This document shows positions 45,177 to 63,949 of a DNA stretch of 64,000 nt, one piece after another (within the stretch, counting starts at the first letter, position 1; every line of letters begins with the position of its first letter). A program made the position numbers and the translations under genes. The stretch covers positions 9,208,424 to 9,272,423 of the forward strand of contig NC_081334.1 of the NCBI RefSeq assembly GCF_022539665.2, read 5' to 3'. Source of the stretch: Daphnia carinata (taxonomy: Eukaryota; Arthropoda; Branchiopoda; Diplostraca; Daphniidae). A model generated the notes under the pieces. That model had not been told where the DNA came from and made no database searches. It was given only the letters and a program-made list of their open reading frames with translations.

Positions 45177-45622
45177 TGTAACGTTGGGTTTCTGAATAAC
45201 TCGCGACTCAATTCACTAGATTCTAAGTGTATTTATCAAGACTAAAACAGACTAATCACACAGACGTAGATACAATAATAGATTTTCTAAGAACTCTAAC
45301 ACACTCGCTAAGCTCTCTAACACGGACACTTAATACACTCTTAACACACTAAACACAGACCCCGAGCCCCCCTTTTGTCACAGCTTTTATCAGTTATTAT
45401 GAGGTCACTCTTGACGTCAATGGTGACCTCCGAGAGATGTGACGTGAAGACGAAGTGATCGTAGGGGTGAAGAGCTGCCTGATACTGGTTTGGCGTGGGA
45501 AGACTCCGTGAGGATGAAGGACTGTCTGATACCAGTTCGCCGTGGGATCATCCAAGGCTGGAATCTATTAATTAGCTAAGCTAACTAATTGGTGGCGTTC
45601 TTCGGTATATGTCCTCATCACA
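45177..45622 (-). repeat. Element B 3' LTR
   Basis: TG...CA ends (TGTGATGAGG...GTTACA on the minus strand). Bordered by the polypurine tract on the internal side and GTCC on the outside. Confidence 0.95.
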
Positions 45623-45636
45623 TTCCTCCCTTTTTT
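45623..45636 (-). other. Element B polypurine tract
   Basis: AAAAAAGGGAGGAA on the minus strand directly abuts the 3' LTR. Element D has AAAAGGGGGAGGAA at the same place. Confidence 0.85.
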
Positions 45637-45964
45637 ACAGAAGTTGCCTTCGGGGTTACAGGGTTGGAGAATATATTTATGTCTAAGGAAGCTATAATGA
45701 TACCGATAGGTCTACAAAATTTTCTAAGTCTAATTTATGCAGTTGTTTTTTTTCTCTTCACCGTAAGAATTATAATTGTTAAACATTTCTTGTTAGTAGG
45801 AGAGTGGAATAGTGGAGGAGATAGGTAAGGGGTTATTATTATTATTTTATTTTATTTTTATTTTTTTTTTTTTTTTTTTTTTTCGATGCGAACCTTATAA
45901 TTGTTGTTTTTTGTTCCGGTGTGTTTCATTCGTTTCTTGCCCTTCGCCGAGCTCCCTCGTGCAT

Positions 45965-46465
45965 GATGGAATTTGACTTTACGTGCGTCTCATCGTGCTG
46001 CCATCGATACTGCTTTGTGGATTTTCGAAGTTATAGCGTATCACAAGTCTCATTTGCTCTTCCGAAGATTTCTCTCCACTGATCGAGGACTTTTCGATGA
46101 GTGTTGAAAATTGTCCTCCTCTTGACTTCGGGTACCGACGAGTCAGTCCTACCGACCGTTACTATATGTAAGTCGGAAAGTGGTTCTTTTCTTAGCATTC
46201 TGTTGACTTGTTTTTCTTTTTCAGTCAGTTTCCAGGCTATGCTCGCTACTGCGACATTTACCCAATCCGGTTTGCACGATTACTCTGGTGGCTAGAGTCT
46301 GGTGAGGATATCTATCACCGCAACTGGCGTTCATCACTCTTCTTGAAGGAACAATTGCAAGAAGAATCCCATCATTCAGTGGCAATGCAGAACGTACACC
46401 GTCTTCTCCGTCAACTTCTGATTGGCACCGATTTTATGCTGGTTAGTTCCTTGTATTTCCAGTAG
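45965..46465 (+). pseudogene. Antisense accessory gene, copy 1 (in element B)
   Basis: Plus-strand gene between env and the 3' LTR of B. The homologue of copy 2's ATG is at 45965 (MEFDFTCV), but exon 1 carries indels and a stop relative to copy 2. A later ATG at 46097 (MSVENCPPLDFGYRRVSPTD) is in frame to the splice site. The 57-bp intron is 46168-46224 (GTAAGT...TTTTTCAG). Exon 2 (46225-46465) encodes QFPGYARYCDIYPIRFARLL, SGEDIYHRNWRSSLFL, QNVHRLLRQLLIGTD and SSLYFQ. Either a shortened roughly 105-residue protein or a decaying copy. Its last 23 bp overlap the 3' end of the env fragment on the other strand. Confidence 0.65.
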
Positions 46466-46682
46466 AATACACAACTTTAATAGGTCCTTTGTTTTTGGTT
46501 AAAAGTCGGTAATTAATTTTAGTTGGAATTTCTACTGGTTCAGGATGTGAACAGTAGTCGGGATCGTCTAAATCTAAAATACCTTTTATTACTGGTTGTG
46601 AGCAGTTGCAGGTGTTGATGGTTAGTGAGTGGGCTAGTCCTACAGCTATAACAAGGACGAGAGTTGCAATAACGTTACTCAT
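46443..46682 (-). pseudogene. env: Element B env N-terminal fragment
   Basis: The ATG lies 7 bases after the pol stop. A signal peptide (VIATLVLVIAVGLAHS) is followed by a Cys-rich start, NTCNCSQPVIKGILDLDD and then DYCSHPEP. It ends after 79 codons, right at the antisense gene. No ectodomain or anchor follows, so most of env has been deleted. The C-x-C...LDL...C opening fits the N-terminus of the same glycoprotein type as element D env (inference). Confidence 0.6.
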
Positions 46683-46688
46683 CTGTAA

Positions 46689-48623
46689 TTATATTTCCGT
46701 AATCAATCTTTGTGGCTTTTTAATCGCTTGTCTTAGCGACCTTCTAACAGGTATTTCGATATCATTTTGCCTTCTCCGTCTTACTCTAGGTTGTTCAGTT
46801 TGTGCCTGACCACTTTCAGCTGATAACTGTGCTGCTTCTTGCCGATTGCTATCTTCCATTTCTGTTTGAATATTCAGCTCCTCTTCTCTATTGTCAACTC
46901 CGATTTCACTCTGTGTTTCCTTTTCTTCACTTTCTAATTCTATCCTAGGGCTACATTCGTTATCGCTGTTGTTTCCCTCTCTTTCTTCAGCTACTTTTCC
47001 CGCATCTTCCTTGCTTTTCCATTTCTTGAGGCGATTTACATGCACGACTGTAGTATGATTTTCCGTTGTTCTCCTAATCAAGTAATTCAAGTCAGATAAC
47101 TTATCTACAATAGTAAAAGGACCATCCCAACGCATACAAAATTTTCCTGTTTGTGGGTTCATTTCCTTTAAAAGCACTAAGTCTCCTGGCTCAAACGAGC
47201 ATTCTTTCGATGAACGATCGTAATTCGCTTTTTGTCTTGACTGTGCGATGACTAACTTACTTTTAGCGAGTTCTAACGCTTCATGCCACTGTTGCGTATA
47301 AATATTGTTTTGGTCTTCTAAAATCCTATTTCGCATTGGGGGTCTCAAATCCGATGGTTCTAAGGCATCTCTGCCTTTTAGAAGGTAAAAGGGAGTTTCA
47401 CCGGTGCTGGAGTGAGGCGTCCGGTTATAAGCCGCAACTACATAATCAAGATGCTCATCCCACAAAGATGGGTTGTGAGCTACGTGTGCGGTTAGCATAT
47501 CCCCTAATGTCCTATTGAACCTTTCTACCGCGCCATCTGTTTGCGGGTGATACGCTGTAGTCCTTAACTGTTTTACTCCTAATTGCTTACATAATTCGGT
47601 CATTGCCTGTGACTGGAAATTAGAGCCTCTATCCGTTAGGATCTGCGAGGGTAATCCCTCACTGTTGACAACGTGCCGAATGAATTTCCGGATGATTGTC
47701 TGAGGGGAAATTTCCTTCAGTGCAATGGCTAATATATACCTAGTTGTATACTCCATTATTACTAGAATATATTTATTCCCTTTTTCGCTTTCTGGGACGG
47801 GACCTATAATATCCATGGCCAATCTTTGCCCGACATAGTCTGTAACAGGGATTGGCTGGAGTGCGGCTTTGCACGATCCAGAAACCTTTCTTTTTGCACA
47901 TGTTAAACAGTTAAGCACGTGCGTCTTGATATCATTTGCCATTTTCGGCCAAAAATACTTTTTGCTAATATTAGCAGTGGTTTTAGTTATTCCCAGATGA
48001 CCAGCTAACTTATGGTCATGATAAAGTTCCACGATCTGTTTACGTAGCGTCGCCGGCACTACAATTTTTGCCCTAGCTGTGGTTAAAAGTCCGCTAGGTA
48101 AATATTGGAATTCATCTTCCGTTTCTTTGGATGTAGTCTCTAATGTTTTTGCCACCTCTCTACAAAAGGTATCCTCTTGTTGAGCAATTAACCAATCGTC
48201 AGCCACGACTTGCTGCGATACTATAACATTATCCGGTATTCTGCTCAACGCATCTGCGTTTTGATGCAGTTTACCTGGTCTATATTGAATCTCCATTTCA
48301 AATTGTTGTAAGAAGAAAAACCATCTGGCTAGTCTCCCTGTCGGTTCCCTAACCTTTTGGATATACTGAAGAGGCCTATGGTCGGTCACTATTACGAAGT
48401 TAGTGCCATATAGGTAATGGAAGAACGCTTTTACCGAATGGATAATTGCGTATGCTTCCTTCTCCCTTGTACACCATTTCAATTGAACATCCGTTAGGTG
48501 CTTAGAGGTATAAGCAATTGGGTGCTCTAGAGACTTACTCCAATCCTCTGTCGATTCGTCGACTACTCCTGAGTCATTTATTGACTCCTCCTTGGGCCCT
48601 GGGTTGGCATTCGGATGGGGCAT
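46689..48623 (-). CDS. pol: Element B RNase H (3' part) and integrase
   Basis: 644 open codons. The RNase H remainder (HPIAYTSKHLTDVQLKWCTR, ADALSRIPD) is preceded by an acidic insert of about 40 residues after the ILSQ-like strand. Integrase: zinc domain HDHKLAGHLGITKT...CLTCAKRK near residues 205-250, catalytic core MDIIGPVPESEKGNKYILVI, TDRGSNFQS and DGAVERFNRTL (D,D,E), then a GPF module (MRWDGPFTIVDKLSDLNYLI). The acidic tail ends in a basic, Arg/Lys-rich segment (VRRRRQNDIEIPVRRS). All catalytic residues are present. Two stops lie upstream, at 48721 in RNase H and 49003 in RT. Confidence 0.95.
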   Translation of the reverse strand: MPHPNANPGPKEESINDSGVVDESTEDWSKSLEHPIAYTSKHLTDVQLKWCTREKEAYAIIHSVKAFFHYLYGTNFVIVTDHRPLQYIQKVREPTGRLARWFFFLQQFEMEIQYRPGKLHQNADALSRIPDNVIVSQQVVADDWLIAQQEDTFCREVAKTLETTSKETEDEFQYLPSGLLTTARAKIVVPATLRKQIVELYHDHKLAGHLGITKTTANISKKYFWPKMANDIKTHVLNCLTCAKRKVSGSCKAALQPIPVTDYVGQRLAMDIIGPVPESEKGNKYILVIMEYTTRYILAIALKEISPQTIIRKFIRHVVNSEGLPSQILTDRGSNFQSQAMTELCKQLGVKQLRTTAYHPQTDGAVERFNRTLGDMLTAHVAHNPSLWDEHLDYVVAAYNRTPHSSTGETPFYLLKGRDALEPSDLRPPMRNRILEDQNNIYTQQWHEALELAKSKLVIAQSRQKANYDRSSKECSFEPGDLVLLKEMNPQTGKFCMRWDGPFTIVDKLSDLNYLIRRTTENHTTVVHVNRLKKWKSKEDAGKVAEEREGNNSDNECSPRIELESEEKETQSEIGVDNREEELNIQTEMEDSNRQEAAQLSAESGQAQTEQPRVRRRRQNDIEIPVRRSLRQAIKKPQRLITEI

Positions 48624-49715
48624 CTGAGAGAGTATTCCGCCTACTCCATACCCGCACGCATCCGTGTGTAGGATGAAAGGGCGCGCGAAATCCGGATAAG
48701 CGAGGGTAGGGGCGGAACATTAACATTCTTTTATGCCTTCAAAAGCGCTTGTTTCCTCTTGCCCCCATTGCCATGGTACTGCGCTCCTCGTGAGCCTTGT
48801 CAGTACATGGACTTTATTGGCGAATTGATCTATGAAACGTCTGTTATAGTTAGCTAATCCTAGGAATGCCCTAACCTGATCTGGATTTTTAGGTGCTGGG
48901 TACTTCTTTACCGCCTTAATCTTATTTGGGTCTACCTTTACCCCTTCGTCGGAGACTATATGACCTAGATACTCAACTGCGTTGGCCGCAAACTTACACT
49001 TTTAAATTTTCACCTTAAGGCCATTTGTCTGCAAAAGACTAAATGTCGAGGTGAGATGTTGTACATGTTCGGCTATGCTCTTGCTGTAGACAATGATATC
49101 ATCAATGTATACCATTACGCATTTACCTATGAGAGGTCTAAGGACGATTTCCATCGTCCTTTGAAACGTGCTAGGCGCGTTGCACAGTCCAAACGTCATC
49201 CTAATATATTCAAAGTGACCCATTTCTGCCGTGAATGCAGTTTTATGGATATCTTCCTCTGCTATCTCGATTTGCCAATACCCACTAAACAAATCGAGGG
49301 TGGAAAAGAATTTAGCTCCACTTAGCAGGTTTAGTGTTTCTTCTATCCTTGGTAGCGGATAACGATCCTTTACCGTTACCGTGTTTAGGTCCCTGTAATC
49401 TACACAAAATCTGAGTTCTCCAGATTTCTTTTTCACCATTACGATGGAAGCTCTAAAGGCACTATGACTTTCCCGGATAATGCCATATTTTAACATCTCT
49501 TCTATTTGCTGTTTCGCTATTGGCTTGATAGCTGCTGGCATGCGATAAGCACCTCTTAACTTCGGTTGTGCCGTCGTTATAATCCGGTGTTTAAGTACTT
49601 TAGTGCATCCTAACTCAATTAGCTGGGATGCGAAAACGGGTTTGTGCATGTTCAAAACTCGTTCCATTTCTACTCTAGCTGTCCCGTGCAAATGGGATAG
49701 TTCAAAGGCTATCAT
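48624..49715 (-). pseudogene. pol: Element B reverse transcriptase and RNase H (5' part), two stops
   Basis: RT fingers and palm run from 49715: [56 protein letters not shown] and VMVYIDDIIVYSK (YIDD active site). A TAA at about 49002-49004 follows LKVKI; the frame continues KCKFAANAVEYLGHIVSDEG, a second stop falls in the EC-CSAPTLAYPDF block near 48721, and HTDACGYGVGGILSQ (RNase H) leads into the 644-codon ORF. Apart from these two codons it is well preserved. Confidence 0.9.
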
Positions 49716-50284
49716 TGGCTTTTCTTTAATGGTATATATAGGAGTTGCAGCAGTTCGAAGGTCACTGTTGAGCTTTCTTTAATGCTATATATCGGAATGT
49801 TAATCTTCTTAAGGCTGATTACGGATTCTACCCCGTTCAATGATAAGGTTAGTGTTTTGTTTGCTATATCTATTTTTGTTTTATACTTCTTGAAAAAATC
49901 TAACCCTAAGATACATCCTTCTTGTGTTTCAGGCAACACAAAGAAGTCATGCTCCAAACTGCAATTAGGTGTTAACTTAAAACTTATTTTGAAACATCCC
50001 AAAGGGTACATGATGTTCCCTGACGCAGATTCAAATGATTGATTAGGTGTTGTTTCTAACTCAGTTACAATTGCTTTATGATGTAATAAGGCAAATTTTT
50101 CAGAGGACATAATACTAGCTGCTGCTCCTGTGTCGATTAAAGCTTGTGTTTTTTGATTACTAAATTCTACGGGTATCCTAATTAGTCTACATGTTTGTTT
50201 TATTTCATCTATTCTGTTCTTGATTGAAACCTTTTCGGATTTCTGGTCCGACAATCTTTCGCTATATGTCCTGCGTTGAGACAT
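49712..50284 (-). CDS. pol: Element B aspartic protease
   Basis: 190 codons overlapping the end of gag by about 75 bases in another frame, so expression probably needs a frameshift. The retropepsin active site is QALIDTGAAASIMS near residue 50, and GCILGLDFFKKY is the conserved ILG strand near residue 130. It runs to the start of RT with a 4-base overlap (49712-49715) in another phase. Confidence 0.9.
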   Translation of the reverse strand: MSQRRTYSERLSDQKSEKVSIKNRIDEIKQTCRLIRIPVEFSNQKTQALIDTGAAASIMSSEKFALLHHKAIVTELETTPNQSFESASGNIMYPLGCFKISFKLTPNCSLEHDFFVLPETQEGCILGLDFFKKYKTKIDIANKTLTLSLNGVESVISLKKINIPIYSIKESSTVTFELLQLLYIPLKKSQ

Positions 50285-52860
50285 CTATGGCAAGTAATAG
50301 TATTGTCTCTGCTATTACCACTTGTCCTTTGTTTCCTTGCTGGGTCCGCTGATGGGTGGGGACTCTTAGAGCTTGGACGCTCGTCGTAACGTCTCGTCCG
50401 CGAATCGTTTCTATCCCTGTTGTGATAGCTTCTGTTTTGGTATCGGTCTCGACTGTATGGTCGCTCTCGTGATTCGGAGCGGTTCCTGTCGTACGATCTG
50501 TTTCGGTTGTAAGAGTGATCTCTACGGTCTCTACTATACGAATTATCCCTCGATCTCTGTCTATCTTCCCACTTTACGTTATTATATCTTGACGGGTCCC
50601 TACCTTGCTTGTAAGTGTCAATATTGCTTAAAGATCGTTCTTGTCCTGTTTTCGATGTTGTACCTGACAGATTCAATTTAGTTAGATTATTCTTTAGATT
50701 TTCTAATTCCAACTTTGTCTGGCTTAATTCGGCTTCTATGTCTCTAGTTGGTTTTAATATATCTAATTTGAAAACTGGTTTAACTTCTAGTGCTTGTGTG
50801 TTATAAGCAATTTCCTCAGCCTCCAGAGCAGCTTGCTTAAAATTTTGCCAATTTGCGGTGGTTGGGTACTTATTGTGGAAAAGAATTGTTTTAATTGGTG
50901 GAAGTAGTCCATCTAATAGCATTTTAATCAGAGTGTCGTCTTTAAGAGCTGTGAGTTCCGCACTTTGAAATTGCTCTTCGTCTCCTTCTTTATAGATTGC
51001 GTTATAAGCCTGCGTTATTTTGTCTATAAAATGCCTAACTGGTTGGTTAGGGGATTGTTTTACCGTTAATAACTTGGACTTCTGTTTTGCTCTATCCGCT
51101 GGGTGTTTAAAATGATCTTTTAATGCATTCCGCCAGTCGGTATAAGATTCTCTCGGTGCTACTCGTAGCCTATCGATATGCCACTGCAATGCTGTTCCCT
51201 TTAACCTTGTGGCTAAAATCTTTTTGGTGGATTCCCTAGGCCATTCGTGAATCGTTGCTATCGCCTCCGCATCTCTCAACCATACCCCTATTGGTTGATC
51301 ATTCACGTTGCCACTATAAATAGGGATGTTCTGTGTTTCGTCTCTACGCGTAATGGCTACTGCTAATGCTCGTATATCATCGTTAGCTGCCATTCTAGGT
51401 GCTTCGTTAGTTGTGTCAATTGTGTTAGCTGGTTGTGCTAGTTGTTCTAATAGTGTCTGGTTGTTTCTATTTAGTTGTTCTATGTTTCCTCTAAGATAAT
51501 TGTTTTCGGTATCCAGCTTAGCTGCTCGCTCCGCTGCTTGGCTCGCTAACTGGAGCGCTTGTCCCAGCTCCGTTAATTCGTTTTCTAAGGACACAATCCT
51601 TCTATTCTGTATGGCTAAGGTGTGTTGTGCTATCTCTAACTCGTTTGTGCTTGCGGCTCCCGCGATTGTTTGTTGTAGCCTTCTAAATTTGTCTTCTAAC
51701 GATTGATTAGCTGTCTGTAATGTTGATATTTCTATTATTTGCTTAGTTTGGTTGTCGTGTAAGGTTGTTTCGTTAATCTGGCTAATGTTCAAATTGTGCT
51801 TAAGTTGATTGTTTTCTGACTGAATTGTAGCAATTTTAGTCGTATAATCTAATTGTTCTTGCTGATGTAGATGTAGCCTTATTTGTCTTTCGTTAATAAA
51901 TTCCTTTAGTTGGGATATTTCGTTTTCTTTGTCCGCTACGTTTAAGATTAGCTTTTTCTGTTCTGTTTGTAGAATCTGAATTTCGTTTTCTTGGTCTAAG
52001 CTCTTTGCCTCAAGAGTTTTGTGGTCTGATTGTAACTTTTCTAGTTCGGCCTGAGTAATGCTATACTTGTTCAAAAGAACGGTTCCTTCTTGGAGAAGTT
52101 GAGCTTCCCTCTGTTTTAGCTTTTCTACCTCCTGTTGGAGTTTAGACTTGTCTTTAACTAGCTTCGTCCTTACCGATGTATGCTCGGACTCAACTTTGCG
52201 TATCGTTGTTTCTAAGGTTTGCACGTCCTGTGTCTTCTTAACAAGCGTGGATATTAAATTCGTTTTCTCCTCCTGAGTTTGTTCTAATTGCTGGGTCAAA
52301 TTACTGGCTTGATATTCTATTGCATGTTGCTGGATTGTAGCTGTCTGTAATAAAACTAAACCTTGACTTTCAAGTTCTTGGATTTTAGCTTCAGCTGCAA
52401 TTAGTTTTTCAGAAATCAACTTGTATTCTAAGTCTTATTCTTTCAAACGTGTTTTCAGCTGTTTAGTGGTTGCCTTATCTTTAGTTGTTTCTAATTCTAA
52501 TTTACATTTATTTATTGCTTCGTGGATTCCTATCAATGCGGTTTTCAGAAAATCTCTCTCCTCTAACAGTTTGTTTCTCTTTCTGCTAGGCAAATTTTCT
52601 TTTGAATTATACCTTACTAATTGTTTTTCTTCGTCACTTTCTCTCGGGCTATCTCCCGCACTTCTAGTTCTTTTAAAAGGAACAATTCGGACTTCTGCTA
52701 TCTCATTTTTCTGTTCTTTATCTAAATTAGGATATACTCTTGGCGTCGTACGCTTAGAGTCAACTACACTACGCCTTCTAGGACGTTCCTTTACTTCTAC
52801 TATCTGCTCTGTCGGGGCGGATGGCGTATATTTGTCTACAGTTAAATCTTCAGTTGACAT
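50209..52860 (-). pseudogene. gag: Element B gag, one in-frame stop
   Basis: From ATG at 52860 (MSTEDLTVDK...) the frame runs to a TAA at about 52435 after RLKE, then continues in the same frame from DLEYKLISEK to 50209. The layout is a basic/acidic N-terminus, a very long coiled coil (about 52420-51380), a Retrotrans_gag core (VWLRDAEAIATIHEWPRES, LKGTALQWHIDRL), an Arg/Ser/Tyr-rich tail (RDRRDHSYNRNRSYDRN) and a CCHC knuckle (CHRCLNAGHIAKDC). At about 880 codons it is much longer than usual gypsy gag; the extra length is the coiled coil, which element A shares. One base change would account for the break. Confidence 0.9.
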
Positions 52861-53014
52861 TGAAACAACTTACCCTCTGCGCGGGGAGTTCAAGACGATT
52901 GCCGATCGTCTGCAATGTTATGCGGTAGGCCTTTCGGTCCGCTAGTTGAGCCGCTGGGCAGGAGTCTGGGTTGGTCACAGTCGAACTAAGTTCAACACTG
53001 GCACGTTCACCAAA

Positions 53015-53461
53015 TGTAACGTTGGGTTTCTGAATAACTCGCGACTCAATTCACTAGATTCTAAGTGTATTTATCAAGACTAAAACAGACTAATCACACA
53101 GACGTAGATACAATAATAGATTTTCTAAGAACTCTAACACACTCGCTAAGCTCTCTAACACGGACACTTAATACACTCTTAACACACTAAACACAGACCC
53201 CGAGCCCCCCTTTAGTCACAGCTTTTATCAGTTATTATGAGGTCACTCTTGACGTCAATGGTGACCTCCGAGAGATGATCACGTGAAGACGAAGTGATCG
53301 TAGGGGTGAAGAGCTGCCTGATACTGGTTTGGCGTGGGAAGACTCCGTGAGGATGAAGGACTGTCTGATACCAGTTCGCCGTGGGATCATCCAAGGCTGG
53401 AATCTATTAATTAGCTAAGCTAACTAATTGGTGGCGTTCTTCGGTATATGTCCTCATCACA
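53015..53461 (-). repeat. Element B 5' LTR
   Basis: Near-identical to 45177-45622. The internal side continues TTTGGTGAACGTGCC on the minus strand, a putative primer-binding site whose tRNA I cannot assign. Confidence 0.95.
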
Positions 53462-53837
53462 GTCCTCAATTCTTGGTAGAGGGTACCGATCCTTTATTGT
53501 TACCGCATTTAGATCTCTATAGTCAACGCATAGTCTCAATTCACCTTTTTTCATTTCATATTTTTTCTTAACCATAACGATTGATGCTCTGAAAGCACTG
53601 TGGCTTTCCCTTATGATATTGTACTTGAGCATTTCTTCGATTTGTTGCCTTGCTATCGGTTTGATTGCTTGGGGCATTCTATATGCACCTCTCAATTTGG
53701 GATTTCCTATTGTTTCTATTCTATGTTTAAATACACTAGTTCTACCTAATTCTATTAATTTAGATGCAAATACATCTCTATGACTGTTTAAAACTTGACT
53801 AATTTTGACTCTGTCCTTCACATCTAAGTGTGACAAT
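53462..53837 (-). pseudogene. pol: Element C, right part: RT N-terminal segment
   Basis: The minus strand encodes [51 protein letters not shown] and [20 protein letters not shown], which ends at the element B insertion (TSD GTCC). It carries a short extra segment (KYEMKK) in the fingers compared with B. The right end is cut by element D's 3' LTR at 53838. It continues at 45176 on the far side of B. Confidence 0.9.
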
Positions 53838-54213
53838 TGTAATATTGTGGTTTTAAATGAATCAAAACTCGATCACTAGATACTAAGTGTATTTCACAAG
53901 ACTTCATATGACTAATCACACGGACATAATAACAGTGTAAACTCCCTGGCGAGGCTCTACGAGTCTCGCCTTATATAGATATTAACCAGGTCACTCTTGA
54001 CGTCAAAGGTGACCTTCTAGAAGTCATCACGTGAAGACGGAGTGATGATGGTGTGGAGATGATGCTGACCGATACCAGTTTATCACGTGATGGCGACGTG
54101 TTGTTAAGAAGCTGACCGATACCGGATTGTGGTGAAGATCGCCCAAGGCTTGGTATCTGGTCATTAGCGAGTCTTGCTAATTGGCAGCTTCTTCAAGATG
54201 TGCCCTCATCACA
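53838..54213 (-). repeat. Element D 3' LTR
   Basis: 376 bp, TGTGATGAGG...ATTACA on the minus strand, homologous to the element B LTR (shared TCACTAGATNCTAAGTGTAT and GACGTCAA...GGTGACC blocks) but clearly diverged. The adjoining polypurine tract on its right shows that it ends an element extending to the right. The TSD partner is outside the window. Confidence 0.85.
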
Positions 54214-54230
54214 TTCCTCCCCCTTTTAAA
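54214..54230 (-). other. Element D polypurine tract
   Basis: AAAAGGGGGAGGAA on the minus strand, directly abutting the LTR. Confidence 0.85.
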
Positions 54231-54493: not shown

Positions 54494-55009
54494 ATGGAGT
54501 TTGATTACATGTGTGTGTTGTCTAACCGTGCTGCTGTTGATACTGCATTGTGGTTTTTTGACGTCGTGGCGTATCAACGTCCCTTCCGACTATTTTATTC
54601 GTTTGATCGTGATCTCTTTTTCACTTTGTACCGGCCATCCTTGATTGTTGAGACTGGTATCCCTTTCGATTTTGAGTTTCGGCGTGTCTGTCACACCGAC
54701 CGATATTATTCGTGAGTCGTATGGCATTTTCCTCTTGGTGTTCCTCTTAGTTTCTTTTTCTTCTGTAGTCGTTTCCCGGGTTATGCTCGCTATCGCGACA
54801 TTTTCCCGATTCGATTTGCTCGGCTCCTCTGGTGGTTGGATTCTGGTGAAGATGTTTTCCATCGGAATAGCCATTCGTCTCTTTTCTTGGCTGAACAGTT
54901 TCAAGAGGAAGTTATTGATCAAATAGTGATGCGCAACGTTCATCGCGTTCTTCGACGACTTTTGGCGGACACCAACCCCTTGCTGACGACTTACTTGTAT
55001 TTCCGCTAG
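54494..55009 (+). CDS. Antisense accessory gene, copy 2 (in element D), intact two-exon gene
   Basis: Exon 1 (54494-54711) encodes MEFDYMCVLSNRAAVDTALW, YQRPFRLFYSFDRDLFFTL and DFEFRRVCHTDRYY. A 57-bp intron (54712-54768, GTGAGT...TTCTGTAG, phase 2) follows. Exon 2 (54769-55009) encodes RFPGYARYRDIFPIRFARLL, SGEDVFHRNSHSSLFL, MRNVHRVLRRLLADTN and TYLYFR to TAG. Total 152 residues, aromatic- and Arg-rich, with no signal peptide, membrane segment or Cys cluster. I recognise no family. It reads out of the 3' LTR side, convergent with env (190 bp between stops). Conservation of exon 2 and of intron position and length in three copies argues that it is real and carried by the element. Possible roles (transcription control, antisense regulator, nuclear factor) are guesses. 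Confidence 0.75.
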
Positions 55010-55060
55010 AATACACTTTTCCAAGGTTCCTTATCCATTGACTTTCCCTTTTCCTTCCTT

Positions 55061-55198: not shown

Positions 55199-56577
55199 TC
55201 AGTTTTGGGGTGCAATAAGACATCCGTCGTTCCAACAGAGTCCTTTACCGGGTATAATTTGCGTATCATTGTGTATATTGGTACAGGTTTTATGTGCTAA
55301 CATAGGAATTTCTTGTTTAAGATTTTTAGGGTTTTTCTTTCTTTTACATAGACTAATGATTGCAGTGAATGGTATAAAGGCAATACAAATATAACTAATT
55401 AGTATGGTTATTGCTATTACGACTACGGCTAAAATTCCATATTTAAATATTGACATCCAACTGGTCATATCCCAGAAATTTACCTGGGATCTATTATCTA
55501 AAACTAATCCAGAAAGTGAATTAGTATTAGATTGTTGTATTCTACTGACTAATTCTGTTAAAACATTTAACTGTTCAACACTATTTTCCTCGTACATCGA
55601 GTGATGTTGGGGCAAATAGTCATAAGATTTGAGAGGCAAATCCTCAAATGCTTTAATTAGTTTCAATTTTAAAACATGGATAGATGGCTCCTGCATTTTC
55701 CATTCACCATTTATCCAAGTATATGTCTTGTCATTTAAATTGACATATTGTCCATTCCAGAAACAGTCTTGGAATGGGTGTAGGGACCAACCATCCTTTC
55801 CAACGGTGAAATTGGTATTCGGGTCCGTTTGAAAAAATGGTTGATAGCCGCATTTTGTTTGTACGGCTGTTATCTTGATTGTGACAGTTTCGCATTGCTG
55901 CAAAACTAGGCTTTTACCGTTTCCGGTTATTCTACTACATTCATTTAGATTTAACGCGCGGGCTGCGAGCAGTCCGTTCGTTTGTGCTAGAATCATTGCT
56001 TGATTCCGCTGTAATGAAGTGATTTTGCAATATAACTGTCGCACTTCGTTGGCTAATTGCGATTCATGTTTTATTGCTTGGCCCTCGATGTACTGTCTAT
56101 TTTCGATATCCAACAGCGCACGAACGCTGTCCACTATCTGAGCCTTTGTCTCATTACTCTGGATGTTTCGAACTTCGCTGGAGTCGTTTAGCTCGATTAG
56201 CCTTTCTCGTCTCTTCCTGTTTCTTTCTTCTCTTCGCTTCTTAATTGCATTTGCATCTTCTATTACATCTAGAGGCAGGAATGCAGGTGCTAGTGTTCTT
56301 TGAAAAATCCATTCTTGTATTTTTTGTGAAGAGTCACAGGGTACTGCTCGCACCGTTTTATCTTCATACAGTGGAACTAAGCAAAATGGATTATCTTTTA
56401 ACGCGAAAAGTCTGTCCACTACATTGTAGTTCCACAATGTTCTATTGCTAAGCTCGCTGTTGCATGGTTGCGTCGTCATAGGCATTACGCAGTTTGATGT
56501 TGACAAAACTCCTAATTTCCCGTTTACATAACCAAAATCCTGTTTAGGGTAACCATCGGTCGAACTACTTTGATTAC
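55199..56577 (-). CDS. env: Element D env glycoprotein, C-terminal part
   Basis: The frame is open from the element E insertion at 56577 through the nominal start at 56506 to 55199. Features in order: a Cys-containing block YNVVDRLFALKDNPFC... CDSSQKIQEWIF, a basic patch RNRKRRER (furin-like), heptads, KHESQLANEVRQLYC, QTNGLLAARALNLNEC, LQQCETVTI, KCGYQPFF, FTVGKDGWSLHP, a transmembrane helix YGILAVVVIAITILISYICI and a tail with IPGKGLCWNDGCL. I associate the order QTNGLLAA / LQxC / CGxQPF / GxDGWS / TM with chuvirus-type class III glycoproteins, also seen in some arthropod LTR elements; this is recall, not a search. The gene is interrupted by element E and continues at 63950-64000. Confidence 0.75.
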
Positions 56578-56934
56578 TGTTATGGATATTGCCGGCGTCG
56601 GACCCAGGTCGTGAGCAGCTGGTAGGATGGGGCAGATAATTCAGCAGATGGAAAGGAATAATAATCCAACAGATAGCCGAGACAAGTATATTTTACCCGA
56701 TACACTTAACACAGTACACCTTCACTTTAAGGGTTACGCGAAGGGAAGCCAGCAAGATGCAGAGCTCCTTCTTAGGACCACTTAGTAGACGGCGAGGTAA
56801 CTGACTGCCCTAAACCATTGACAGCAGACGACCCCGTCGCATACCCTCCGGTCTGCCATCTATCAAGGGGAGATATAATCGGGACACGAGATGGGGATAC
56901 ATGACAATAGTTATGGGTTATGACACTTGTAACA
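56578..56934 (-). repeat. Element E 3' LTR
   Basis: 357 bp, TGTTACAAGTG...CCATAACA on the minus strand. A short purine-rich tract (AGGAAGGGCCGAA) lies on its internal side. Confidence 0.95.
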
Positions 56935-57049
56935 TTCGGCCCTTCCTGACTCGAAGTTCCATACGAATAACACAAATAAAACACAGGGGTTTTCTGGAAC
57001 TTCGAAATTGCCTCCAAGGAAAAGAAGATAACCGAGGAATGAAAACAAA

Positions 57050-57105
57050 AACAACAAAAAAAAAAAAAAAAAAAAAAAAAAGGAAAATACTCCCAACTAC
57101 TGACC

Positions 57106-57142
<37 letters not shown>

Positions 57143-57355
57143 GAGAGAATGGGAAAAAAAAAAAAATTCCTCCCTGAGGCTCACGGCTCTTCACACCCAC
57201 CCAAATGACGGCGATTTATCAAAGCAAAAAAAAACAATTAACAAATAACATCACCACCCCCCCCCCAAAAAACAAAAACAAAAACAAAAAAAAAAAAAAA
57301 AAATACCATGACAATCCCAACAATTCCCCCCACACACAAAAAAAAAAAAAAAAAA
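57050..57355. repeat. A-homopolymer-rich 3' non-coding zone of element E
   Basis: Runs of 15-23 A, and a C run near 57258, between the pol tail and the 3' LTR. Frames here (poly-Lys or poly-Phe) are artefacts. Length calls in these runs are unreliable. Confidence 0.8.
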
Positions 57356-57385
57356 ACACGATAGCGAAAGAAGAGCGTGTATGTT

Positions 57386-57760
57386 TTATGTGTTGTAGTC
57401 GTTCATCCATGCAGGTCTTCTTGTCCGTCTCCCAGCTCTTGTAGTTGTTGTTGGCATGTCTCCTTGTGGAGGCTCTTCCGACTCGGACGAAGATGAGTCG
57501 CTCGAAGAAGACGAAGACGAAGATGAAGATGAAGACTCGTCGACTGCCACATCTTCCGAAGCGTCCCACTCCACATCCGACCGACCATTGAAGCGACGAA
57601 TCTGGCAGACGTGGACGTTAAAACGCCTATACGTTGATTTCTTCCGTTGCGCGGGCAGGTCTTCGACTAGGTAGGTTGTTTGCGACAGCTTTCGTACTAC
57701 CTGGAATGGCCCCATAAATTTAGGAAAAACTTCTTGGTGGAATTTTTCTTTCTTGGCTTC
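57386..57760 (-). pseudogene. pol: Element E integrase C-terminus (GPF module and acidic Ser tail), frameshifted
   Basis: GPFQVVRKLSQTTYLVEDL is the GPY/F module that should follow the integrase core. It is in a different frame from the 1264-codon ORF, which ends 18 bases inside it. The module is followed by VHVCQIRRFNG, a run of Ser with Asp/Glu, and a basic end, GRRTRRPAWMNDYNT. A one-base indel near 57760 is the likely cause. Confidence 0.85.
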
Positions 57761-60700
57761 CGTCTAACTAGAACAAGGTCACCCTGGAGAAACTCGGGTT
57801 CCGGCTTCCGCCTTCGATCCGTTCTTTCCTTACTTTTTCTTTGTTTTTCCATGATGCGCAAACGAGCTGACGACCTCCATTCTGAAACGCGTGACAAGAA
57901 AGTTGCATGTGGTTCTTCTTCGTTCTTTGGCCAAGGAAAGAGATTTTCTATGGCTAGGACTGGTGGACGACCATTCACTAGTTCAAACGGCGTTACCTCG
58001 GTTGTGGCTTGTCGGGCAGTATTGATAGCATACGTTGCGGCTGCTAAATGTAAGTCCCAATCCGTATGCTCGGGGTTGACAAAGGCGCACAATGCAAGTG
58101 TTAGCGTACGATTAACTCTTTCCACTAATCCATTAGTCTCCGGATGCTCTGCAGTGGCCAAAATGTGTTTAATATGCCAGCGCGTCACCCATTCGGCGAA
58201 CATCTGGGACGTGAAGGCTGATCCCTGGTCGCTAACGATACGTTGCGGTGTACCATGGCGAAAAATAATGTTCGTCTCGAGGAACGACGTAACAAATTTT
58301 GTTGAAGTGTCAGGTACAGCAGCCACCTCGACCCACTTCGACAAATAGTCTATTGAGACGATTATGTGACGATGTCCAGAAGCAGTGACTTTAAACGGGC
58401 CCAAGTGATCGATTCCGATCAGCTGGAACGGAGAAGTTGGTGGTTCGATGGGCTGTAGTCGACCAACCACCTGACCAATGGCGTGTTTGTGTGTTTGGCA
58501 AAAAGAACAAGATTGTACAAAAATTTTTACGCTCCTACCCAGCCGTGGCCACCAAAATCGACCTTTAATTTTAGAAAGAGTTCTGTCCACACCCTGATGG
58601 CCAGAAGAAGGAGAATCATGACACGCTTCCAAGATTTTTCTACGAAGGATAGAGGGAATAACGAGTAGCAACTTCCTGCCAGAATGTTTGTTTTTTTTAT
58701 ACAGAATTTTACTACGGATGACAAAATCTTGGGAAATTTTACAGGGCGTAAGGGTGTCTAATGCAACAAATATTTTCCGTAGCTGGCCGTCTTGTTGTTG
58801 CAAGAGGGCGAGCTCTTTTGAGGCATAACCCACTTCGGGTTCTTTTACAATGACTGCTAGACAATCATCTGGCCGGGAAACAATGCCGTCGGCAGGGTTC
58901 CTGGACAGTGTGTCCGCAACAACATTATCCGTACCTTTCACGTGCTCAATCGTGAAGATAAACTCCTGTAACTCAAGCACCCATCTAGCAAACTTCCCCT
59001 TTAAATCCCTTTTCCCCATCATCCACTTGACGGCTGAACTGTCCGTCTTTACAAAAAAATGTCTCCCATAAATATACGAGCGCAATTTTTTGAGTGCCCA
59101 CACCACCGCCAAACATTCCAGTTCATTGGCGTGATATCTAGTTTCGGTGTCCGACAGCCTTCTGCTGATGAAAGTCACAGGTCGATGTCCTTCACCAGCA
59201 TCTTGCGTCAACACTGCTCCTAGACCAGTTTGACTTGCGTCAGTCTGAATAGTAACTTCTAGAGCGTCATCGAAATGAGCCAGAACAGGAGCAGTCGTAA
59301 GACGCGCTACAATACTGCTCTTTGCGTCTTCGTGACGTTCCGTCCATCGCCAAACAGCATTCTTTTTGAGGAGAGCGTGCAAAGGGTGAGCCAATGACGC
59401 AAAATCAGGGACAAAACGCCGATAGTACGACGCAAGTCCAAGAAAACCTCGTAGTGATTTCAAATTTGTAACAGGCATGGAAGTCAAGGCGCGCACTTTC
59501 TCGCCTTCCGGGTGAATACCTTCCGCATCAATTACGTGTCCCAGATGGGATACCTTGGTGGCGCCGAAAACGCATTTGTCAATGTTCAGTGTCAAATTCG
59601 CTCGCTCTAGAGCTGTTAACACCAACTCTAGGCGTGCCAAATGCTCGTCAAAAGATCGGCCAAAAACCAATATATCATCTAAATAAACTAGGCACATATG
59701 CCACTTCAACCCAGCCAAAACTCTATCCATTAAACGTTGAAACGTCGCCGGAGCATTGCTCAACCCGAACGGCAAACGTTTAAACTGATAAAGACCGTCT
59801 GGAGTGACAAACGCTGTCTTCTCCCTATCTTCCAACGCTACAGGCACCTGCCAATATCCACTGGCCAAATCCAAGCAAGAAAAAAATTGTGTACCTGCTA
59901 GCCTGTCCAAAACATCGTCGATGCGAGGTAACGGATAAACATCACGTTTCGTCACCGCATTTAGACGTCTAAAATCAATACAAAAACGATAGTCACCAGA
60001 TTTTGCTTTACGAACTAAAACGACGGGCGAACTCCACGGACTAAAAGATTCTTCGACAACACCGTCTTCTAACCTTTCCTCAACCTTTTCCGCAATAATC
60101 TGACGTTCGAACGCTGATACCCTACATGGTGCAGACTTCACCGGACAAGCATTCCCCGTGTCAATATGATGTTCAACTTCAGTGGTTTGCCCAATTTCCC
60201 TTTTTGACTTCGGAAAGCATTTTCGTCGACGTTCAAGCATACCCATAAGTTTTTCACGTTGACCAGAGTCTAGTCCCTCCCCAATATAAACCTGAGTGAT
60301 GGATTTGGCTTCATCACCTACTGGAAGAACGGTGGCACAAATTTCAGACTCCCCGTCTGTCAAAGTAGACAACACGGCGTCGTCGTTCAGTTCAACAGTA
60401 CAAAAGAAATGCCGTCGTCTCAGTCTCAACTCCGCAGGGGAATAATTCACAAGGGGTATCTCCGTTAGTCCTCTATTTACCGTCACGACACTGGCTGGTA
60501 TCACCCACTCCTTTCCCGGCTTCGAACAACAATTAAACTTAACGAAAGCCGTACCAGAGACATCTGTCGACAGTCTTCCCTTCACAAAGACTAGCGAGTT
60601 TGGGGGAACCACCTGGTGTCCATCTGTCTTAACTGGGATCCATCCACGTCGTTTCGAAGGCGATTCCTCCGCAAAAGACTCGATCAGACCGTCGCTTATG

Positions 60701-61491
60701 TCAAAATCTTCTTCATTACTCCCTTCTTCCTCCGAAAATGTTTCCTCCCTGCTGCTTTCCTCGTTAATTATATGCACTTCTTCCGACCATCGCACCTTCT
60801 TTTTCTCCTTCGTCAAAACTTCCTCTATCTTACTTCCTTCGTCCTTTTCGACTTCCCTGTACCCCTGATTTAAATTTCCCTCAATTAATGCTATATCCTC
60901 TCTTTTTACCTCCTTTTCTGCTACGTTACTTTTCTCCCTTACTAAATCTAAATCCCTATTTTCCTCCCCCCTTACACCTTTCCCCGTTATGTTACTCTCC
61001 CCCCTTACTAAATCAAAATCCTTATTTCCCTGCGTCACCACACCCTTATTTTCCTTCTCAACTAACCCTTCCCCGACTAATTCAATTCTCCCTCCCCTTA
61101 CTGCAATGTTAGTTTTGCTATTTACAACCCAGTCGACACCCAAGATTAGTGCGAAGGGAGCGGTCCTTAGAACGGTTACGGACGGTAGGGTTACAAAGCT
61201 GTCCTTCCATTTGATGGATAAGGGTAAGGACCCCTCTACTCGCACAACCTTGTTGTCGACTCCCCTTAACTTAGTTTTTGTGACTTTACGCAGCGGATCT
61301 AAAAACTTACGGACGACGCTTAGCCGCACGGCACTGACGCTAGCACCTGAGTCGACAAGTGCTACTACTTCTCCTACACTTTTTATCCACACCTTGATAA
61401 GAGGCAAGGCTGGGCGACTTTCAGTGACAAAAAATCCCTTCAAGGGCGCCATTGCCCTCGACGCACTACGCCGTCGTTTTTTGCCGGACAA
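57697..61491 (-). CDS. pol: Element E pol: protease, RT, RNase H, integrase
   Basis: 1264 codons. Protease ALVDSGASVSAV near residue 47; an acidic Glu/Lys-rich linker (about 140-285); RT with SGDYRFCIDFRRLNAVTKRD, FFSCLDLASGYWQVPV, LPFGLSNAPATFQR and CLVYLDDILVFG (YLDD); RNase H VTIQTDASQTGLGAVLTQ and ADTLSRNP; integrase zinc CHDSPSSGHQGVDRT...CSFCQTHK and core IGIDHLGPFK, VSDQGSAFTSQMF, PETNGLVERVNRTL. All catalytic residues are present. The clade differs from B, C and D: separate LTR sequence and no env. It may be active, or recently so, apart from the C-terminal frameshift. Confidence 0.95.
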   Translation of the reverse strand: MSGKKRRRSASRAMAPLKGFFVTESRPALPLIKVWIKSVGEVVALVDSGASVSAVRLSVVRKFLDPLRKVTKTKLRGVDNKVVRVEGSLPLSIKWKDSFVTLPSVTVLRTAPFALILGVDWVVNSKTNIAVRGGRIELVGEGLVEKENKGVVTQGNKDFDLVRGESNITGKGVRGEENRDLDLVREKSNVAEKEVKREDIALIEGNLNQGYREVEKDEGSKIEEVLTKEKKKVRWSEEVHIINEESSREETFSEEEGSNEEDFDISDGLIESFAEESPSKRRGWIPVKTDGHQVVPPNSLVFVKGRLSTDVSGTAFVKFNCCSKPGKEWVIPASVVTVNRGLTEIPLVNYSPAELRLRRRHFFCTVELNDDAVLSTLTDGESEICATVLPVGDEAKSITQVYIGEGLDSGQREKLMGMLERRRKCFPKSKREIGQTTEVEHHIDTGNACPVKSAPCRVSAFERQIIAEKVEERLEDGVVEESFSPWSSPVVLVRKAKSGDYRFCIDFRRLNAVTKRDVYPLPRIDDVLDRLAGTQFFSCLDLASGYWQVPVALEDREKTAFVTPDGLYQFKRLPFGLSNAPATFQRLMDRVLAGLKWHMCLVYLDDILVFGRSFDEHLARLELVLTALERANLTLNIDKCVFGATKVSHLGHVIDAEGIHPEGEKVRALTSMPVTNLKSLRGFLGLASYYRRFVPDFASLAHPLHALLKKNAVWRWTERHEDAKSSIVARLTTAPVLAHFDDALEVTIQTDASQTGLGAVLTQDAGEGHRPVTFISRRLSDTETRYHANELECLAVVWALKKLRSYIYGRHFFVKTDSSAVKWMMGKRDLKGKFARWVLELQEFIFTIEHVKGTDNVVADTLSRNPADGIVSRPDDCLAVIVKEPEVGYASKELALLQQQDGQLRKIFVALDTLTPCKISQDFVIRSKILYKKNKHSGRKLLLVIPSILRRKILEACHDSPSSGHQGVDRTLSKIKGRFWWPRLGRSVKIFVQSCSFCQTHKHAIGQVVGRLQPIEPPTSPFQLIGIDHLGPFKVTASGHRHIIVSIDYLSKWVEVAAVPDTSTKFVTSFLETNIIFRHGTPQRIVSDQGSAFTSQMFAEWVTRWHIKHILATAEHPETNGLVERVNRTLTLALCAFVNPEHTDWDLHLAAATYAINTARQATTEVTPFELVNGRPPVLAIENLFPWPKNEEEPHATFLSRVSEWRSSARLRIMEKQRKSKERTDRRRKPEPEFLQGDLVLVRRKPRKKNSTKKFFLNLWGHSR

Positions 61492-62740
61492 TCTCTAGCA
61501 ATATGGCGTGCCGATTGCACGAATAACACAATCTTGGCGCTGATCCCCTTGGGGTAAACCCTCCACCACCCATCCGCGGAGCACTAGGTCCGGGATTAAC
61601 AGTGAGTCGTGACAGCGACCATGAAATTTGGTTGACCAAGCGGTCTCCCAGACTTTGAAAGAGTGTGGTCAAATCCTGTGTTGCTGGCGCAGGGATAGTT
61701 GACTGAGGGGCTGTTAAAACAGGGGGCGTTGGTTGTAAAAACGGCGCATTTGTAGTCGCTGGCACACTGGGGACTGGAGGCGTTAACCCAAGTTGCTCTA
61801 AGTCTCTGAGTCGCGTCAAAAAGGCCATAAAGTCTACCGGTAAAGGAGAAGTTAAGGCTGCGACGTGAATAGGGTTCGCGAGACCTCTCAGCAACATCTT
61901 GATAACGTCAGCCTCCGGTAACGGGACGGGACAACGTAGGCACAACCGTCGCTTGTCCAACGCGTATTCAAGACAAGATTCCCCTGGTTTTTGTACCCTT
62001 GACTCTACGAGCGAACTCCACTCCAAAAACGAAAGCGCTCGAGCAAAGTTTGTCACTAGTGCGGCTGACCAAATAGCCCAGGTAGCGTGATGGTGTCCCG
62101 TTTGCACGTGCCATTGGGAGGCCGTGCCCTCAAGACGTGTCACAGTAACCAAAAGTCGATTCTCCTCTGTCCAACCCTCTAACCCACCAACGCGTTCCAC
62201 ATGGTCAATAAACCCTTGCGCATCTTCGCCAACAGCACCCGAGAAGCGTGGTATAGAACTGACAGCAATCGTCGACGGACGGACTGTCTGGGCAGCTGGC
62301 AAAGCGGCAGCAAGTGCTTGGAGAGCTTCGTTGTTCTGTTGTTGTTGCACGTTAATAATTTCGACGAGTTGGGCAACCTGATTTTGCCTCGCCGCACCGT
62401 CAGCCGCTGCTACTTCAGCAAACCTATTCAATGCCACGATTAGCTCGTTATTGTCTGCCATGTCCGTTGATGGAGATGCTTCTGCCGCCAGTACAAACTC
62501 TAACTTCGGACAGCTTTTTTTCGTCGCAGGTGAACGCGGCACCGGACGAACAATACGTGCTCTTGCTGTTGTTTGACGAGCTTGTCCCCTCTGATTCCGC
62601 AGGTAGTACTGTGGTTCAAAGCCAAAAAAGGGATCTGGGACGTCGGGATTCAAATCCGACATGCAGAACCAACCGTACGAAAATCCGAAAATACCAAAAC
62701 AAAAAAAGAAAAAAAAGAAAACAAGCGCGAAAGGCCACAA
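61466..62740 (-). CDS. gag: Element E gag
   Basis: About 420 codons. I would start at MSDLNPDVPDP or at MADNNELIVAL rather than at the upstream Phe-rich part of the frame. The Retrotrans_gag core has FSGAVGEDAQGFIDHVERVG, EGTASQWHVQTG and a Pro/Thr-rich linker, then the first half of a zinc knuckle (LCYSCNR). The second half of the knuckle (HIARDC) lies in another frame, and pol begins in the third. The core packages element RNA. Confidence 0.85.
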   Translation of the reverse strand: MWPFALVFFFFFFCFGIFGFSYGWFCMSDLNPDVPDPFFGFEPQYYLRNQRGQARQTTARARIVRPVPRSPATKKSCPKLEFVLAAEASPSTDMADNNELIVALNRFAEVAAADGAARQNQVAQLVEIINVQQQQNNEALQALAAALPAAQTVRPSTIAVSSIPRFSGAVGEDAQGFIDHVERVGGLEGWTEENRLLVTVTRLEGTASQWHVQTGHHHATWAIWSAALVTNFARALSFLEWSSLVESRVQKPGESCLEYALDKRRLCLRCPVPLPEADVIKMLLRGLANPIHVAALTSPLPVDFMAFLTRLRDLEQLGLTPPVPSVPATTNAPFLQPTPPVLTAPQSTIPAPATQDLTTLFQSLGDRLVNQISWSLSRLTVNPGPSAPRMGGGGFTPRGSAPRLCYSCNRHAILLEIVRQKTTA

Positions 62741-63330
62741 ACAAAAAAAAAAGGAGGCCCAAAAAATGAGAGAAAAAAAACAACAAAAAAGCAGAGAAAA
62801 AAAACAAATAAGTACGTACGTACTAAGACGTCTCGACCAAGATCAGGAGGTCGACAAAACAAAGCAAAAGCCAAAAAAAAAAAAAAAAGTTGTTGAACGC
62901 AACCAAAATGGCGAGCCAAAAAAACGCAACACCATAAAAAAAGTACCACAAAAAAAAAAAAAAATACTCTGTGGGTGAGCGAAAAAAAGAAACACAAAAC
63001 GCCGTCAAAACCAAAAAAAAAAAGGAAAAGTGAGAAGCCGAGCGAGGTCTCACAGCGTAATTCGCACACAAAAATCTTTTCCTTGTCCACGCGAAAAAAA
63101 GGTGGAAGAGAAAAGAAAAAAAAAACACTTCCGCACCGTAAATCCAATCGCTAAGGAGAAAAAAAAAAAAAAAAAAAAAAACAAAATATCACACGTGACA
63201 ACAAAAAAAAAACGTGTGAGGCGTTCCAAAAATAAAGAAAAAAACGGAACGTGCAGCACAAAGCAGGGCGGGCAAAAAGCACGCCGCAAAAAAGATACAA
63301 TTTCTACTACACACCGTACAACAAAAATCA
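62690..63330. repeat. A-homopolymer-rich leader of element E
   Basis: About 640 bp between the 5' LTR side and gag, with many A7-A21 runs on the plus strand (T-rich leader in the element's sense). Long Phe-rich or Lys-rich frames on either strand are artefacts of composition. Confidence 0.8.
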
Positions 63331-63593
63331 TGCGTTGGGATTGTTTATTAGATAGCCCGTGGCTATAGGTAACAAGGGTTGAAATACTTACCTGTACCGT
63401 TCCTCCACCCTTCAACAAAGACGTCGCGGCGGGATGGGATCCACTCCCCTTCGGCGTCAGCAAGGACAATCCCCAATGGCGGCGACCAAGTACGCGAAAA
63501 TATCCTATTCACGTGGGCGGCAGGCGGGTCCGATGTGGGCGACTTTATAAAAGTCGTTCGATGGCCTACTAATATCCCTCTTCTGACACCAAT

Positions 63594-63949
63594 TGTTATG
63601 GATATTGCCGGCGTCGGACCCAGGTCGTGAGCAGCTGGTAGGATGGGGCAGATAATTCAGCAGATGGAAAGAATAATAATCCAACAGATAGCTGAGACAA
63701 GTATATTTTACCCGATACACTTAACACAGTACACCTTCACTTTAAGGGTTACGCGAAGGGAAGCCAGCAAGATGCAGAGCTCCTTCTTAGGACCACTTAG
63801 TAGACGGCGAGGTAACTGACTGCCCTAAACCATTGACAGCAGACGACCCCGTCGCATACCCTCCGGTCTGCCATCTATCAAGGGGAGATATAATCGGGAC
63901 ACGAGATGGGGATACATGACAATAGTTATGGGTTATGACACTTGTAACA
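63594..63949 (-). repeat. Element E 5' LTR
   Basis: 356 bp, nearly identical to 56578-56934. TSD ATTAC follows at 63950-63954. Confidence 0.95.

What the first reader, a model, noticed from the sequence alone, without database searches (positions are those of the whole stretch)
54494..55009. Spliced antisense gene between env and the 3' LTR of a gypsy element
In element D a 152-codon, two-exon gene runs antisense to gag-pol-env, starting 280 bp inside the 3' LTR and converging on env. Splice sites are canonical, and the joined frame is open from ATG to TAG. The protein (motif GYARYRDIFPIRFARLLWW) matches no family I know. Antisense spliced genes read from the 3' LTR side are known from deltaretroviruses (HTLV-1 HBZ), and unspliced antisense ORFs from some plant gypsy elements. 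An intron-bearing one in an arthropod env-bearing gypsy lineage would be new to me.
Basis: partly seen in the sequence, partly recalled or inferred. Interest (0 to 1): 0.9.

Follow-up and report, generated by a model that had tools for sequence, protein, structure and literature searches.

The report
Spliced antisense gene in Daphnia retroelements
Many virus-like mobile elements in a water flea genome carry a small gene that runs backwards relative to the rest of the element and is interrupted by one intron; sequence comparisons show that it is kept by selection in two distant element lineages, much as some human leukaemia viruses keep a backward gene.

Summary
The two-exon antisense frame is real: exon 1 54494-54711, a 57-nt GT-AG intron, exon 2 54769-55009, 152 aa. 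Its 3' LTR is 53843-54213; a 98.4% identical partner lies beyond the window. One correction: the gag-pol at 57697-62740 belongs to another element nested inside this element's env. The genome is probably Daphnia carinata (inferred). I compiled 144 matching places. In 20 tabulated copies the intron has the same phase-2 place, GT-AG in 19, and lengths in all three classes modulo 3. Selection on the joined frame is purifying: pN/pS 0.24-0.53 in 21 pairs, 0.22-0.49 in a second lineage. The gene lies antisense just after env at 54 of 97 env matches and at 35 of 49 loci with an unrelated Baculo_F env; upstream of env at none. Annotated D. carinata and D. magna proteins read across the same junction. 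No RNA evidence was reachable; splicing, promoter and an HBZ/APH-like regulatory role are inferred. Nearest precedents: deltaretroviral HBZ/APH and plant antisense ORFs.

The parts
53843..54213 (-). 3' LTR of element D
   Evidence: 98.4% identical over 371 columns to L021 8044-8409, the 5' LTR beyond the window
54214..54230 (-). polypurine-tract-like run beside the 3' LTR
   Evidence: the plus-strand string CACATTCCTCCC recurs in front of the antisense gene in 14 of 18 loci examined; L037 has a shortened form further away, L022, L035 and L040 do not show it (L022's upstream stretch was short)
54494..54711 (+). exon 1 of the antisense gene, from ATG
54712..54768 (+). 57-nt phase-2 intron, GTGAGT...TTCTGTAG
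   Evidence: same position in the 20 copies tabulated, GT-AG in 19 of 20
54769..55009 (+). exon 2 of the antisense gene, to TAG
55199..56576 (-). C-terminal half of element D's env, cut off by nested element E; ORF listed to 56506
56578..63949 (-). nested gypsy element E (gag and pol at 57697-62740), not part of D
   Evidence: LTRs 56578-56934 and 63594-63949, 99.4% identical; Pfam RT, RNase H, integrase
45177..53467 (-). element C, related to D by pol, without detectable env
   Evidence: LTRs 45177-45628 and 53015-53467, 99.1% identical; no env match between integrase and LTR
45988..46462 (+). antisense gene copy of element C; reading frame broken in exon 1, splice sites kept

Best explanation
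It is a conserved, protein-coding, two-exon accessory gene carried antisense between env and the 3' LTR by env-bearing Ty3/gypsy elements of Daphnia. SHOWN by sequence: the same intron place and phase, exons that join in frame only when the intron is removed, purifying selection on the plus-strand frame in two lineages, and a repeated antisense position just after env. INFERRED: a polymerase II transcript starts antisense in the 3' LTR or in the leader between LTR and ATG (about 270-355 nt in 14 loci). The host spliceosome removes the intron, and an about 150-aa soluble, arginine-rich, probably helical protein is made. Because the intron is readable only in the antisense transcript, the sense genomic RNA keeps it through reverse transcription. 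The antisense promoter can also act when sense transcription is shut off. INFERRED, less certain: the protein works like HBZ/APH, as a regulator that tunes sense expression or counters host silencing so that the element persists.
For: Joined frame. 158 genome matches for the protein. Intron at the same phase-2 place in the 20 copies tabulated, GT-AG in 19 of 20, lengths 57-78 nt in all three classes modulo 3; the same junction with GT-AG in three copies of a distant lineage, L045-L047. In D the first 50 residues of exon 2 have no in-frame ATG before them, so they need exon 1. The plus frame has the lowest pN/pS of six frames in 26 of 28 pairs; in 21 of 21 pairs of the seven most distinct copies it is below 1, with 0.1% of bootstrap replicates at or above 1 in one pair and none in the other 20. 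In the second lineage pN/pS is 0.40-0.49 in exon 1 and 0.22-0.30 in exon 2 for 3 of 3 pairs. Stops in the plus frame in 1 of 15 copies in each exon, against 6 to 15 of 15 in the other frames. Geometry: 54 of 97 env matches have the gene antisense within 2.5 kb downstream, none upstream; 35 of 49 Baculo_F-type env loci, gaps 136-369 nt, all 35 antisense, none upstream. Proteins annotated by others that read across the same junction: LOC130697633 of D. carinata, OUZ56_033781 and OUZ56_030076 of D. magna. A full element with 99.8% identical LTRs keeps the gene unbroken although its integrase and env are partly deleted (L031).
Against: No RNA data could be reached: splicing, promoter and protein are all inferred, and the exon coordinates behind the annotated proteins were not seen. 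The protein of D has no Pfam match at E 0.1, one of seven relatives has a weak DUF4129 match (E 0.036), PDB sequence matches are not significant. Both models are poor (mean pLDDT 41.7 and 54.5) with no fold match, so the regulator role rests on analogy. 54 of 144 antisense places were not found next to either env type: degraded copies, other env types or something else. 42 of 97 env matches of the first type and 14 of 49 loci of the second have no antisense match; one of the 55 matches is on the same strand. 8 of the 20 copies are broken by my reading. In the second lineage 3 of 6 fetched copies do not show an intact junction: L048's GT is displaced by one base, L050 has lost its donor, L049 has no recognised exon 1. 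Antisense and env histories disagree in places: D and L024 differ by 6% in env but 25% in the antisense protein, so the gene is exchanged between elements.
Confidence: 0.82

Rival explanations
1. The protein is real, but acts on the host or on other elements rather than on its own transcription: for example it blocks a small-RNA or immune pathway, or interferes with superinfection by elements with the same env.
For: It sits just after env in elements with two unrelated env types. Elements with a related env carry a sense ankyrin-repeat ORF at the same place instead (L041, L044), which looks like a slot for exchangeable accessory genes.
Against: No domain or fold supports any target. Element C keeps the gene without env, although its frame is broken.
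Confidence: 0.35
2. The useful product is an antisense noncoding RNA that pairs with the element's sense RNA; the reading frame is incidental.
For: Antisense noncoding RNAs of retroelements are known (passages of PMC7264820).
Against: Selection acts on the protein frame. Splice sites and phase are conserved while intron length varies freely.
Confidence: 0.05
3. The coding frame is on the other (sense) strand, where D has a 144-aa ORF at 54590-55024.
For: That ORF is open in D, and one complementary frame has the second-lowest pN/pS in most pairs and the lowest in 2 of 28 (D-L024 and L022-L024).
Against: Every minus-strand frame has stops in 6 to 15 of 15 copies over exon 1 and in 9 to 15 of 15 over exon 2. 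The plus frame is lowest in 26 of 28 pairs. The annotated Daphnia proteins use the plus frame.
Confidence: 0.02
4. It is a host gene fragment captured once and carried as a passenger.
For: An intron inside a retroelement gene suggests an origin from cellular DNA, and the origin of the protein is unknown.
Against: Copies as far apart as 32% identity in exon 1 keep the same structure, in two lineages whose RTs are 43% identical, both under purifying selection, so it is neither recent nor a passenger. No homologue clearly outside elements was found, though the context of the D. magna and D. pulex proteins was not seen.
Confidence: 0.05

Closest known systems
HBZ of HTLV-1 and APH-2/3/4 of HTLV-2/3/4 (deltaretroviral antisense genes)
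   Same: antisense to gag-pol-env, 3' of env, spliced mRNA; APH-2/3/4 also lack bZIP (passages of PMC10186651; the place 3' of env is recalled)
   Different: no Pfam bZIP match; different virus family and host; the intron is short and inside the coding region here; transcription and function untested
Antisense additional ORFs (aORF-3R) of plant gypsy elements: Grande gene23, RIRE2, Retand TRP28 ORF; Boty of fungi
   Same: [quoted passage not shown] passages of PMC11963269)
   Different: the word intron does not occur in the main text of either paper; no recognised env in the Retand elements of that paper; no TRP28 match here
Antisense mRNA of Steamer-like element 1 of Mytilus chilensis (animal LTR retrotransposon)
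   Same: antisense RNA from the 3' LTR of an animal LTR retrotransposon, with an ORF (passages of PMC10974842)
   Different: 67-aa ORF in an element drawn with gag and pro-pol only; the passages seen report no intron in it and no conservation across families

Membership tests
Spliced antisense accessory gene of a retroelement (HBZ/APH type) | antisense to gag-pol-env, between env and 3' LTR | tested here: met
Spliced antisense accessory gene of a retroelement (HBZ/APH type) | spliced transcript | tested here: inconclusive
   conserved GT-AG intron and annotated proteins that read across it; no reads available
Spliced antisense accessory gene of a retroelement (HBZ/APH type) | transcription from the 3' LTR antisense promoter | not testable with these tools
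   only conserved DNA blocks between LTR and ATG were seen
HBZ proper | bZIP domain | tested here: not met
   no bZIP match in Pfam at E 0.1 for D or at E 1 for seven relatives
Deltaretrovirus | Retroviridae gag-pol | tested here: not met
   element C, related to D by pol, matches Retrotrans_gag, RT_RNaseH and Integrase_H2C2 models; that these are gypsy-type is recalled; no RT tree was made
Plant Retand antisense ORF | TRP28 domain PF04195 | tested here: not met
   no match
Env-bearing Ty3/gypsy element (metavirus/ERV) | LTRs, gag, protease, RT, integrase, env with signal-like and membrane segments | tested here: met
   element C proteins in Pfam; gene order in L025 and L032, LTR pair in L031; open env frames with hydrophobic ends in L030, L032, L033 and a furin-like site

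The most novel reading that the evidence does not exclude
Arthropod endogenous retroviruses of the gypsy kind evolved, independently of deltaretroviruses, a spliced antisense regulatory gene. It is an old module that has been kept while env was replaced by an unrelated one, or has moved between gypsy lineages, and it is the persistence gene of these elements.
Probability: 0.5. Interest if true: 0.9.

Novelty: new variant of a known kind. Interest (0 to 1): 0.8.

Why it matters
[quoted passage not shown] Here is a large, selected, intron-bearing family of such genes in a genus that is kept in laboratory culture (recalled). It would make antisense regulation in retroelements a recurrent solution rather than a deltaretroviral oddity, and it is directly testable with stranded Daphnia RNA-seq. 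It also shows how a retroelement can keep an intron: by placing it on the strand that is not its genome.

Tried and rejected
Minus-strand coding: rejected on stops and pN/pS. Host-gene fragment seen once: rejected by multi-copy families. Homology to Pfam, PDB or IMG/VR: nothing usable (where 19 pattern hits were all unconfirmed). Structure: two ColabFold jobs with 5 and 11 sequences gave low confidence; Foldseek against PDB with the second model gave 0 matches. IQ-TREE codon models ran, but omega was not printed, so none is reported. Tight co-evolution with env: only partly; distances correlate (r 0.68 with env over 10 elements, 0 of 2000 permutations; r 0.48 with integrase over 8 elements, 31 of 2000), but the elements are mosaics. 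Lysine-poor protein (0 Lys, 19 Arg in D): about 1.75 Lys are expected from the T-rich composition, so not striking. Core promoter: conserved blocks seen, none assigned. The D. pulex protein P0007 as a query found only the same places. A PF12259 search of the genome was asked for three times and not answered.

Full report
OBSERVATION. The finding holds as written. Exon 1 is 54494-54711, the intron 54712-54768 (GTGAGT...TTCTGTAG, 57 nt, phase 2), exon 2 54769-55009, joined 152 aa. The frame is not open through the intron (one TGA), and in D the conserved start of exon 2 has no in-frame ATG of its own.

WHERE IT SITS. The window is contig C4:9208424-9272423 of a 108-Mb genome. The homologous protein P0002 is named as Daphnia carinata and lies on a contig of 13,273,426 bases, the length of C3 of this genome, so the species is inferred to be D. 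carinata. Element D is read on the minus strand. Its 3' LTR is 53843-54213 and its 5' LTR is L021 8044-8409, 98.4% identical. The ATG is 281 nt inside the LTR edge. env follows (C-terminal half, 55199-56576). The env N-terminal half and an integrase that fits D lie in L021. Element C in the same window also has an antisense copy, without env and with a broken frame.

A GENE FAMILY. tblastn of the protein gave 158 matches, of which only part is listed. With two further queries I compiled 144 places for the geometry test. Some are probable assembly duplicates, such as C56 of C4 and C37 of C49, and were not removed; a few rest on exon 1 alone. At base level I tabulated 20 copies that have both exons. 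The near-duplicates L009, L010, L012, L013 and L019 were not tabulated, and L034, L038 and L039 had no exon 1 match. In these 20 the intron is at the same phase-2 place, GT-AG in 19 (L037 has lost the donor), with lengths from 57 to 78 nt in all three classes modulo 3. Nine of the 20 are near-identical members of one family (L017, L018, L026-L032). By my reading, 12 of 20 show no stop or frameshift. In a second lineage 6 copies were fetched: L045, L046 and L047 have the same phase-2 junction with GT-AG; L048's GT is displaced by one base, L050 has lost its donor, and L049 has no recognised exon 1.

SELECTION. For eight representatives (28 pairs) pN/pS in the plus frame is 0.22-0.53 and the lowest of six frames in 26 of 28; in two pairs one complementary frame is slightly lower. 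For the seven most distinct (21 pairs) the codon bootstrap gives upper 97.5% limits of 0.39-0.67, and both exons are below 1 in every pair. Jukes-Cantor dN/dS, where dS was finite, is 0.17-0.34. In the second lineage (L045-L047, 3 pairs, exons apart) pN/pS is 0.40-0.49 in exon 1 and 0.22-0.30 in exon 2, with upper limits of 0.40-0.73. Stops: plus frame in 1 of 15 copies for each exon, other frames in 6 to 15 of 15. Of the 20 copies, five (C, L017, L028, L037, L040) were left out and twelve out because they were broken, cut or near-identical; this favours the plus frame somewhat.

GEOMETRY. For D-type env, 55 of 97 matches have an antisense-gene match within 2.5 kb downstream, 54 of them antisense and 1 on the same strand; upstream 0 of 97. 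The 42 misses include many env copies about 40% identical to D's. Four stretches beside such misses were fetched: L041 and L044 hold a sense ankyrin-repeat ORF at this place, L043 a broken one, L042 an unrelated integrase. The second lineage has a Baculo_F env (L051, E 3.4e-22). D's env fragment has no match at E 1e-3 in L041-L053. With a full env frame as query there is none in L051, and two stray matches, one in L053 (E 0.38) and one of 72 residues in L052 (E 4.9e-5) about 3 kb upstream of its integrase match. Using the env C-terminus of L045 as query, 35 of 49 merged loci have the gene 136-369 nt downstream, all 35 antisense, 0 of 49 upstream. The RT of that lineage (L053) is 43% identical to that of element C. 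Together 90 of the 144 places lie just after an env, 89 of them antisense; 54 were not placed.

RELATIVES. Proteins in public data: D. carinata P0002; D. magna P0003, P0004, P0005 and shorter or chimeric ones; D. pulex P0007 and P0017. P0002-P0004 read across the junction. 16 proteins passed E 0.1 in the widest search; the 14 with a source name are all Daphnia, and two (P0012, P0016) bear none. P0012 stops where exon 1 ends, so it is no transcript evidence. IMG/VR has none confirmed. Pfam and PDB show nothing convincing.

HISTORY. Antisense and env distances correlate (r 0.68, 0 of 2000 permutations), less so with integrase (r 0.48, 31 of 2000). The elements are mosaics: D matches L024 at 97-98% in parts of env and at 81-86% in the antisense gene. 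So the gene is a module exchanged by recombination. Presence with two unrelated env types in two gypsy lineages means either that it is older than the present env genes or that it has moved between lineages; I cannot tell which.

MECHANISM. Shown by sequence: coding, intron, antisense place, selection. Inferred: transcription from the LTR side, splicing, translation. Least certain: function. I favour an HBZ/APH-like regulator made when sense transcription is off (about 0.45 within the coding reading); the main rival is a host-directed factor. A retroelement can keep an intron only where the genomic RNA is not spliced, which the antisense strand guarantees; this follows from the replication cycle of LTR elements (established knowledge).

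LITERATURE. Ten searches (one search was about ankyrin repeats) listed 5 to 20 papers each; no listed title or abstract reports a spliced antisense gene in an animal gypsy element. The library lacks most subscription papers. Seen: passages of PMC2996953 (the word antisense does not occur), passages and section 5 of PMC7264820, passages of PMC11963269, PMC10974842 and PMC10186651. HBZ and APH details are from the last.

On re-reading the calls I moved L048 from the copies with an intact junction to those without, corrected the polypurine-tract count to 14 of 18, and added, because selection in the second lineage had not been tested before.

Noticed in passing
L041 949-2376 (+), L044 402-1655 (-): Sister env-bearing elements without a detected antisense gene carry a sense stop-to-stop frame of 476 or 418 aa with ankyrin repeats (Pfam Ank_2 E 8.9e-25 and 6.9e-29) right after env; a broken relative is in L043.
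   Followed up: partly
L030 1492-4344 (+), window 55199-56506 (-): The D-type env frame (951 aa in L030) matches the ricin-type beta-trefoil lectin family (E 2.4e-8, 2 stretches) and has a furin-like RQKR site, which seems unusual for an env.
   Followed up: partly
L051 2-1501 (-): The second gypsy lineage with the antisense gene has a Baculo_F env (E 3.4e-22), unlike D's env.
   Followed up: yes
54214-54493: DNA blocks between LTR and ATG are shared by six aligned copies (such as TATAAT, GATAGGTCTA, TTAGTA), possible antisense promoter parts.
   Followed up: partly
44842-45187 and 53462-53842: Pieces of one reverse transcriptase flank element C, so C appears inserted in an older relative; E is inserted in D's env.
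   Followed up: partly
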